DNA of 39,995 bases, from assembly GCA_945870505.1 (NCBI GenBank), contig CAMBSN010000018.1:1-39995 (forward strand), written 5' to 3'. Below, one piece after another: positions 6,284 to 39,629 of the stretch. Made by a program: the position numbers and the translations under genes. The first letter of the stretch is position 1, and each line of letters starts with the position of its first letter. The DNA comes from Candidatus Kuenenia stuttgartensis. GTDB lineage: Bacteria; Planctomycetota; Planctomycetia; Pirellulales; UBA1268. The notes under the pieces are model-generated. The model searched no databases. It was given only the letters and a program-made list of their open reading frames with translations, and had not been told where the DNA came from.

Positions 6284-6377
6284 GTACAAGCCGACCGGCC
6301 GTAAGGCCGCGGGCGAACCACGCGAGACCCAGCCTTCTCCTGGCCGCACCCCACGCCTCACGGCGTTGGGCTTGTAC
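6284..6377. repeat. Small inverted-repeat element containing REP-like hairpin unit
   Basis: gtacaagcc (6284-6292) and ggcttgtac (6369-6377) form perfect ends; contains ccgaccggccgtaaggccgcgggc (6291-6314) and an inverted variant (6349-6371). Confidence 0.65.
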
Positions 6378-13759: not shown

Positions 13760-13969
13760 GATCGACCTTTACTGGATGGGAGCGGCTGCGGCCGCGGCGG
13801 TTCCGCCATCGGCGGGCCGGCGGGTTCTATCCCAGGCTTTCCCCCCGGGGCAACGCCAGCACGGCCGCCGGGGGCCCGGCCGCCGCCGTGGCCGATAAGT
13901 GGGGTAAGCAGGGCAGCCCGGGGGCCACTCAGACGGGTCACACTTGATGCTCGCGCGTGTATCAGGCTC

Positions 13970-14099
13970 GGGACTGCCCATGCCCGTCGCCGGACACTCG
14001 CTACGGCCCTCCAGGCCTTCGCTCGCTCGATGCTGACTTCGCTCCGCCATCCGTGGCTGTGCTTGTCAGCAACGCCGGCTCCCGGGCACGGGCAGCCCC
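13970..14099. repeat. Structured intergenic element, copy 1 (terminal arms 13970-13993 and 14075-14099)
   Basis: Imperfect terminal inverted repeat; long similarity to 39382-39540. Confidence 0.7.
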
Positions 14100-14300
14100 T
14101 CGCTGCATCATTCCGCCCATGTGATTCCGGAAAGGGGAGCAGCCGGATCGGAGGCACGCGCAGAAGCCGGTGAGACTTGTGCCCCGCTGCGGTCGCTCCG
14201 AAGCGTTTGAGCAGAGAACTCACAAGTCCCGCCGGCGCCGAGCATGTCTCCGGCCGGCTGCGGTGCCGCGACGACGCGCGAGGTTCACGTGTGAGCCGTA

Positions 14301-17618
<3,318 letters not shown>

Positions 17619-39261: not shown

Positions 39262-39286
39262 GCAGTGCCCCCGTCCGCCTAGAAAG

Positions 39287-39362
39287 CCGACCGGCCGTAA
39301 GGCCGCGGGCGTCCCCCACGCTGGGGCTCGTGTTCAAACCGACCGGCCGTAAGGCCGCGGGC
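39287..39362. repeat. Two direct copies of REP-like unit
   Basis: ccgaccggccgtaaggccgcgggc at 39287-39310 and 39339-39362, identical to 6291-6314. Confidence 0.75.
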
Positions 39363-39381
39363 TCCTGCCGATGCGCCGCTC

Positions 39382-39540
39382 GGGGATGCCCACGCCCCGT
39401 CGCCGGACGTTCACTCCGTCCATCCTGGCCTCCGCTCACTCGATGCTGCCTACGCTCCGGCATCCATGCCTCCGCCGACCAATCCGCCTGCGGCGGATCG
39501 GTGCCCGAGCAACGCCGGCTCCCGGGGCATGGGCATCCCC
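39382..39540. repeat. Structured intergenic element, copy 2 (arms 39382-39406 and 39515-39540)
   Basis: Terminal arms pair; long similarity to 13970-14099. Confidence 0.7.
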
Positions 39541-39569
39541 TCGCTTCATCACTTCATCGCTTCCCCGTA

Positions 39570-39629
39570 GCACAGGTTTTCAACCTGTGCCTGTCCGGTG
39601 CGTTCCCAGAGCAATCGCTTTTCAGCGAT
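39570..39629. repeat. Two consecutive perfect hairpins
   Basis: gcacaggtt-ttc-aacctgtgc (39570-39590) and atcgct-tttc-agcgat (39614-39629). Confidence 0.65.

What the first reader, a model, noticed from the sequence alone, without database searches (positions are those of the whole stretch)
13970..14099. Dispersed intergenic element with covarying terminal stem (copy 1)
Arms GGGACTGCCCATGCCCGTCGCCGG and CCGGCTCCCGGGCACGGGCAGCCCC pair (CTGCCC/GGGCAG, GCCCG/CGGGC, GCCGG/CCGGC). A second copy at 39382-39540 keeps the pairing while changing bases: CTGCCC/GGGCAG becomes ATGCCC/GGGCAT, GCCCG/CGGGC becomes GCCCCG/CGGGGC, and an internal hairpin GCCA-TCCG-TGGC (14046-14057) becomes GGCA-TCCA-TGCC (39459-39470). 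Compensatory changes in several helices suggest selection or mobility for a folded form, RNA or DNA. On the minus strand it contains repeated GGAGCGAAG / CGAGCGAAG / GTAGCGAG-like blocks. It could be a non-autonomous mobile element or an undescribed ncRNA family.
Basis: seen in the sequence. Interest (0 to 1): 0.7.

Follow-up and report, generated by a model that had tools for sequence, protein, structure and literature searches.

The report
Folding, jumping intergenic DNA repeat family
This is one copy of a roughly 140-base non-coding element present in up to about 200 copies per genome in one family of lake-dwelling Planctomycetes; it keeps the same folded shape on one strand while its bases change, and it appears and disappears between related species like a small mobile element whose engine is unknown.

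Summary
Window 13966-14103 and 39378-39544 are two copies of a ~140-bp palindromic repeat (here 'element A'): about 200 copies in this 3.35-Mb planctomycete MAG, and found in 63 of 72 genomes of its family but in none of 324 genomes of other families of the order. Covariation is strong on 46 divergent copies: 26 of 45 pairs are double-changed, 96.9% of cells are paired, and 0 of 500 shuffles reach this. It is strand-specific: G·T cells outnumber A·C cells 70 to 6 on the minus strand, which folds better in 272 of 277 copies. Internal loops are near-invariant G-N-A triplets. No target-site duplication was found.

Sites are polymorphic. Between two congeners with ~90%-identical genes, three of four compared sites differ by presence or absence; the fourth holds the same copy inverted in place. 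Copies lie downstream of genes.

Best reading: a non-autonomous mobile element of the REPIN/ERIC kind, kept by selection on the folded minus strand. It is not a REPIN: no GTAG tag, and a Y1/RAYT transposase was detected in only 26 of 72 family genomes, uncorrelated. The mobiliser, and whether ssDNA or RNA is the folded form, remain open.

The parts
13966..14103 (-). Element A, copy 1 (the folded strand is the minus strand)
   Evidence: nhmmer/BLAST family of ~70 distinct full copies examined in this genome; CM R1 match at 13968-14101 minus, 133 bits
39378..39544 (-). Element A, copy 2, with a nested ~27-bp palindrome in one arm
   Evidence: CM R1 match at 39380-39542 minus, 92 bits; alignment row L031
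13970..13993 (.). Left terminal arm GGGACTGCCCATGCCCGTCGCCGG (3' arm of helices P1 and P2 on the minus strand)
   Evidence: sequence; pairs 4-21/130-145 and 26-30/120-124 of alignment A1
14075..14099 (.). Right terminal arm CCGGCTCCCGGGCACGGGCAGCCCC (5' arm on the minus strand)
   Evidence: sequence
14000..14028 (-). Arm P4 (approximate limits): hairpin with a short purine loop flanked by a symmetric G-N-A x G-N-A internal loop
   Evidence: helices 6 and 7 of A1: 8 of 9 pairs with both-sided changes; loop conservation
14030..14074 (-). Arm P3 (approximate limits): GCTGAC..GTCAGC stem plus inner hairpin GCCA..TGGC, with G-N-A internal loops
   Evidence: helices 3 and 5 of A1: 11 of 13 pairs with both-sided changes
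13932..14308 (.). Larger composite around copy 1: outer inverted ends CAGACGGGTCACACTTGAT..TTCACGTGTGAGCCGTATCAG containing A plus a second structured module B (~14108-14255)
   Evidence: absent from the orthologous intergenic region of six congeners; outer left end recurs at other sites; B recurs alone or with A
39566..39590 (.). Neighbouring REP-type palindrome GTAGCACAGGTTTTCAACCTGTGC (separate family, often flanking A)
   Evidence: sequence; flank listing

Best explanation
Element A is a ~140-bp non-autonomous mobile palindromic repeat confined to one planctomycete family. It works like a REPIN or ERIC-type element. Shown: (i) its minus strand is predicted to fold into a long terminal stem that opens into two arms; (ii) this fold is preserved while the bases change; (iii) copies come and go, and invert in place, between closely related species; (iv) no target-site duplication is detectable; (v) copies are found downstream of genes and are rare in promoter-side gaps. 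Inferred: the folded single strand is the form recognised during spread, most likely single-stranded DNA exposed at replication and handled in trans by a hairpin-recognising enzyme. This would explain the missing target duplication, the strand-specific wobble pairs, the near-invariant G-N-A loops and the same-site inversions. The enzyme is not identified, and the Y1/RAYT transposase is not a general partner. Because copies sit just past stop codons, they are probably also transcribed into 3' mRNA ends.
For: Copy number and range: dozens of 88-97% copies in the own genome; ~6.4 per 100 kb in 440 kb sampled; CM hits in 63 of 72 family genomes and 0 of 324 others. Fold: 26 of 45 pairs double-changed, 0 of 500 shuffles. 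G.T 70 vs A.C 6 cells, with 24 vs 2 pairs leaning each way, p=1e-5; repeated on a second alignment, 90 vs 20. Minus strand folds better in 272 of 277 copies with RNA or DNA parameters. G-N-A loops 91-100% conserved at most G and A positions while the middle base is free. Mobility: six congeners lack the insert at copy 1's site, and a seventh has an independent copy in the opposite orientation. G008 vs G011: presence/absence at 3 of 4 sites and in-situ inversion at the fourth. Tandem partial copies. No TSD. Position: 99 of 210 copies in convergent gaps against ~20% of intergenic bases, 12 divergent.
Against: No mobilising enzyme was found. Y1_Tnp was detected in only 26 of 72 family genomes, and the A-lacking genomes G022 and G205 have it. 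No longer copy with a gene between A ends turned up in the DNA held. No transposition intermediate, small-RNA or strand-specific data were available. G.T pairs are allowed in RNA as well as DNA, so ssDNA is an inference. The orientation bias towards transcription (64 vs 35, p=0.005) fits an RNA role at least as well. The fetched copies are biased towards those similar to the query.
Confidence: 0.6

Rival explanations
1. The minus-strand RNA is what selection sees: A is a structured 3'-UTR/intergenic RNA (mRNA stabiliser, RNase III or terminator-like processing site, or protein-binding ncRNA) that the host has kept. Mobility is secondary.
For: Copies are downstream of genes; among same-direction gene pairs the folded strand is the transcribed one in 64 of 99; G.T wobble tolerance; G-N-A internal loops also suit RNA; orthologous copies in G000 and G005 have a rewritten but still paired arm.
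Against: Sites turn over very quickly, which argues against a per-gene function. Copies in convergent gaps have no preferred orientation by definition. 35 of 99 copies are antisense. No conserved gene partner was seen.
Confidence: 0.25
2. Pairing is maintained without selection: template switching within palindromes (quasi-palindrome correction) and gene conversion between copies rewrite one arm to match the other.
For: Arms are replaced as blocks; tandem partial copies and in-place inversions suggest that the palindromes recombine and slip.
Against: Such a process is blind to strand, yet G.T:A.C is 70:6. It does not explain conserved unpaired G-N-A triplets, nor three-way geometry kept across 11 genera.
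Confidence: 0.1
3. A classical MITE cut and pasted by a DDE transposase acting on its terminal inverted repeats.
For: Terminal inverted repeats, intergenic location, presence/absence polymorphism.
Against: No target-site duplication across 266 copies. Constraint lies in the interior fold and is strand-specific. No autonomous copy found.
Confidence: 0.05

Closest known systems
REPINs / REP elements mobilised by RAYTs (PMC3116915; PMC3733652)
   Same: Hundreds of extragenic palindromic copies, structured spacer with frequent compensatory changes, hairpin in ssDNA or mRNA, enrichment in convergent and same-direction gaps downstream of genes.
   Different: No GTAG tag. The ends covary with each other rather than forming two separate tagged hairpins. 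RAYT-type Y1_Tnp detected in only 26 of 72 family genomes and uncorrelated with A. Multibranched interior with G-N-A loops.
ERIC / RU elements of enterobacteria (PMC2759123, PMC2229807)
   Same: 103-168-bp intergenic elements of one bacterial family, present in multiple intergenic regions, regarded as MITE-like.
   Different: No detectable sequence similarity in E. coli genomes. The strand-specific covariation and three-way fold are not known to me for ERIC.
CGTC-tagged REPs (PMC3733652)
   Same: Palindromic repeats without a dedicated transposase, mostly downstream of genes. A contains a CGTC next to GCCGG.
   Different: A is about four times longer. Its CGTC is internal, on one side only, and replaced by GAGA- or GGGA-type sequence in some copies.

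Membership tests
REPIN/REP (RAYT-associated) | Two inverted REP palindromes, each with a terminal GTAG (or CGTC) tag | tested here: not met
   Ends are conserved GYGA|GGGG..CCCC|GARC on the minus strand. Column 8 covaries with the opposite arm (CG to UA), not with the local palindrome.
REPIN/REP (RAYT-associated) | RAYT transposase in the genome, flanked by the repeats | tested here: not met
   Y1_Tnp in 26 of 72 family genomes; not detected in A-bearing G009, G012, G013, G020. The own-genome RAYT-like gene at C13 has no A within ~1.4 kb.
REPIN/REP (RAYT-associated) | High-copy, extragenic, hairpin-forming unit with compensatory changes | tested here: met
ERIC/RU | Sequence homology to the enterobacterial element | tested here: not met
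   No match in 20,395 E. coli records at E 0.01.
MITE of a DDE transposon | Fixed-length target-site duplication | tested here: not met
   No direct-repeat excess that looks like a fixed-length TSD in 266 copies; the top excesses are 4-mers in a quarter or less of copies at offset positions inside the conserved end motif.
MITE of a DDE transposon | Autonomous parent with the same ends | tested here: inconclusive
   No paired solo ends enclosing a gene in the DNA held; most of each genome was not scanned for this.
Rfam ncRNA family | Match to a curated covariance model | tested here: not met
   No match at gathering threshold for the whole window, nor at E up to 1 for 13900-14350.
Structured ncRNA | Transcription of the folded strand | not testable with these tools
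   No RNA-seq held; only an orientation bias, 64 vs 35.

The most novel reading that the evidence does not exclude
A distinct class of bacterial mobile element whose unit of selection is a folded single strand (two arms built from short GC helices and opposed G-N-A loops). It is copied and inverted by a machinery other than RAYT/IS200 or DDE transposases, and drives rapid turnover of the sequence after stop codons across a whole bacterial family.
Probability: 0.25. Interest if true: 0.78.

Novelty: new variant of a known kind. Interest (0 to 1): 0.57.

Why it matters
It gives an unusually clean natural experiment: large numbers of copies per genome across 11 genera with strong, strand-specific covariation and demonstrable turnover. 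That lets the long-standing question of what moves and maintains ERIC- or REP-like repeats be tested directly. It also supplies a covariance model that annotates part of the intergenic DNA in freshwater Planctomycetes, and may explain some assembly breaks in their MAGs.

Tried and rejected
RAYT as the general mobiliser was rejected: Y1_Tnp detected in 26 of 72 family genomes and uncorrelated. Target duplications were sought and not found. An autonomous copy (solo left and right ends around a gene) was sought and not found. Rfam, plasmids, phages and E. coli gave no match. Degraded-gene origin was rejected (almost no overlap with predicted genes). A DNA-motif explanation of the G-N-A loops (GNA triloops and opposed GNA loops are stable in DNA, from my own knowledge) could not be supported from the paper library.

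Full report
WHAT WAS CLAIMED AND WHETHER IT IS THERE. Both are in the sequence. BLAST of each copy against the window's own genome (a 3.35-Mb, 180-contig MAG; the window is its contig 18) finds dozens of strong copies, with ~250 first-look candidates of which only 40 were scored. In 440 kb of that genome, 28 near-full copies were counted, 6.4 per 100 kb, or roughly 200 per genome; contigs were partly chosen because they held hits, so this is an upper-side estimate. Stretches of G008 and G009 gave 8-10 per 100 kb and of G018 2 per 100 kb, also chosen around hits.

RANGE. DNA BLAST finds the element in all 21 congeners tested. A covariance model (R1) built from 46 divergent copies finds it in 63 of 396 genomes of the order. 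All 63 belong to the window's own family, which has 72 genomes in the set; the other 324 genomes have none. A pattern scan of named genomes gives mainly lake-derived Planctomycetes MAGs (Planctomycetaceae, Planctomycetia and similar record titles). No match in plasmids, phages or E. coli or Rfam.

ANATOMY (minus strand, 5' to 3'). GYGA, then GGGGCTGCCCRTGCCCC, a short mismatch, GCCGG, arm P3 (GCTGAC.. with an inner GCCA..TGGC hairpin ..GTCAGC), arm P4 (GAGC GNA GGCC .. GGCC GNA GC), CCGGC, GGGGCAYGGGCAGCCCC, GARC. On alignment A1, 96.9% of cells are standard pairs; 26 of 45 pairs have both-sided changes; 0 of 500 shuffles reach any of the five measures; slid versions pair 31-43%. Outside the model, flank positions -3/+3 are C-G 103, T-A 72 and G-C 28 of 266, so the stem continues past two opposed GA dinucleotides. 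Loop positions read G-N-A with the G and A at 91-100% in most loops and the middle base free. Several copies, including window copy 2, carry a nested ~27-bp palindrome at or near the tip of an arm.

WHICH STRAND. If only the DNA duplex, or palindrome repair, mattered, G.T and A.C intermediates should be equally common. On the minus strand they are 70 and 6 (24 pairs lean to G.T, 2 to A.C, p=1e-5), and 90 and 20 on a second alignment that was fitted to the model. At flank position -3/+3 the opposite lean is seen (C.A 26, T.G 6), so that outermost pair may not follow the rule. Minus folds better than plus in 272 of 277 copies with RNA and with DNA parameters. A one-sided deamination bias on an exposed strand could contribute to the asymmetry; it was not tested.

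MOBILITY. Copy 1 sits inside a ~360-bp composite (element A plus a second structured module B and outer inverted ends). The orthologous space downstream of the lactate/malate-dehydrogenase gene lacks the composite in six congeners; a seventh (G016) has its own A copy in the opposite orientation. Between G008 and G011 (genes ~90% identical), of four sites examined one has A in G008 and GTAG-type REPs in G011; one has A only in G008; one has A only in G011, where G008 has another palindromic element; and one has the same A copy inverted at the same junctions, recognisable by its private CCCAATGCCCTGAGAG arm. Between G000 and G005 one composite is inverted and lacks A, and at another site the orthologous A has a rewritten but still pairing arm. 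Partial copies of the plus-left end stand directly before full copies in tandem, up to three in a row, while true solo right ends are almost absent. No target duplication is detectable.

PLACE IN THE GENOME. Genes were called by a codon-usage script of my own, not by a published gene finder. Three samples of 54, 145 and 65 copies were placed; the 54 are largely contained in the 145. Of the 210 copies in the last two samples, 99 are in convergent gaps, 64 in same-direction gaps with the folded strand transcribed, 35 in same-direction gaps with it antisense, and 12 in divergent gaps. Convergent gaps hold only ~20% of intergenic bases. The 64 vs 35 split has p=0.005, with a small possible overlap between samples. 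Two of 65 copies in the second set overlap a predicted gene; none of the 145 do.

WHAT MOVES IT. The own genome has two Y1-transposase genes. One is RAYT-like without A or the main GTAG REP nearby; the other is flanked on both sides by GGCCGTAAGGCC-type palindromes, a likely REP-RAYT pair for that other repeat. Across the family Y1_Tnp is detected in 26 of 72 genomes; A-bearing, near-complete genomes such as G009 and G013 show none, and A-lacking G022 shows four. So A behaves like the REPs for which no dedicated transposase is known (CGTC REPs, PMC3733652).

COMPARISON. REPINs are described as extragenic hairpin units whose spacers show common compensatory changes (PMC3116915), and REPs as lying mainly between convergent or same-direction genes (PMC3733652). 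Element A shares these features but fails the tag and RAYT tests. ERIC/RU elements are the nearest in size and family-restriction (abstracts). The main paper on freshwater Planctomycetes genome architecture (PMC6461901) has no occurrence of 'palindrom' in its main text.

VERDICT. A genuine, and as far as the searches here show uncatalogued, family of mobile, folded intergenic repeats: a new variant of a known kind. The steps shown are repetition, covarying fold, strand, turnover and position. The steps inferred are single-stranded DNA as the moving form and an unknown hairpin-recognising enzyme. RNA action at mRNA 3' ends is the main rival and may coexist.

Noticed in passing
window 39566-39590 and many loci: A REP-type family GTAGCACAGGTT-TTC-AACCTGTG occurs in many copies, often on both sides of element A, and sometimes in tandem.
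   Followed up: partly
window 6288-6324, 39284-39320, 39336-39372: A third dispersed palindrome GACCGGCCGTAAGGCCGCGGGC; similar GGCCGTAAGGCC units flank a Y1-transposase gene on both sides in L062 (596-1535), a likely REP-RAYT pair.
   Followed up: partly
window 14108-14255: Module B, a second structured repeat (GCCGGTGAGACTTGTG..CACAAGTCCCGCCGGC) recurring in congeners with or without A, inside composites with outer ends CTGATACGGGTCACACGTGATCC.
   Followed up: partly
L141 15348-15472, L098 11665-11699, L143 2708-2747: Tandem truncated copies of A's plus-left end directly before a full copy; the opposite truncation is nearly absent. The asymmetry is unexplained and suggests a polar process such as replication slippage or primed copying.
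   Followed up: partly
L136 9279-9412 (G008) versus L338 (G011); L098 16094-16400 (G000) versus L162 (G005): Same-site inversion of whole palindromic elements between close relatives.
   Followed up: partly
L138 15653-15775: Another ~123-bp palindromic family (TCGGGGGTCGCGCGCAGCCGCCGG..CCGGCGGCGAGCACGTGCCCCCGA) with at least five copies in G011.
   Followed up: no
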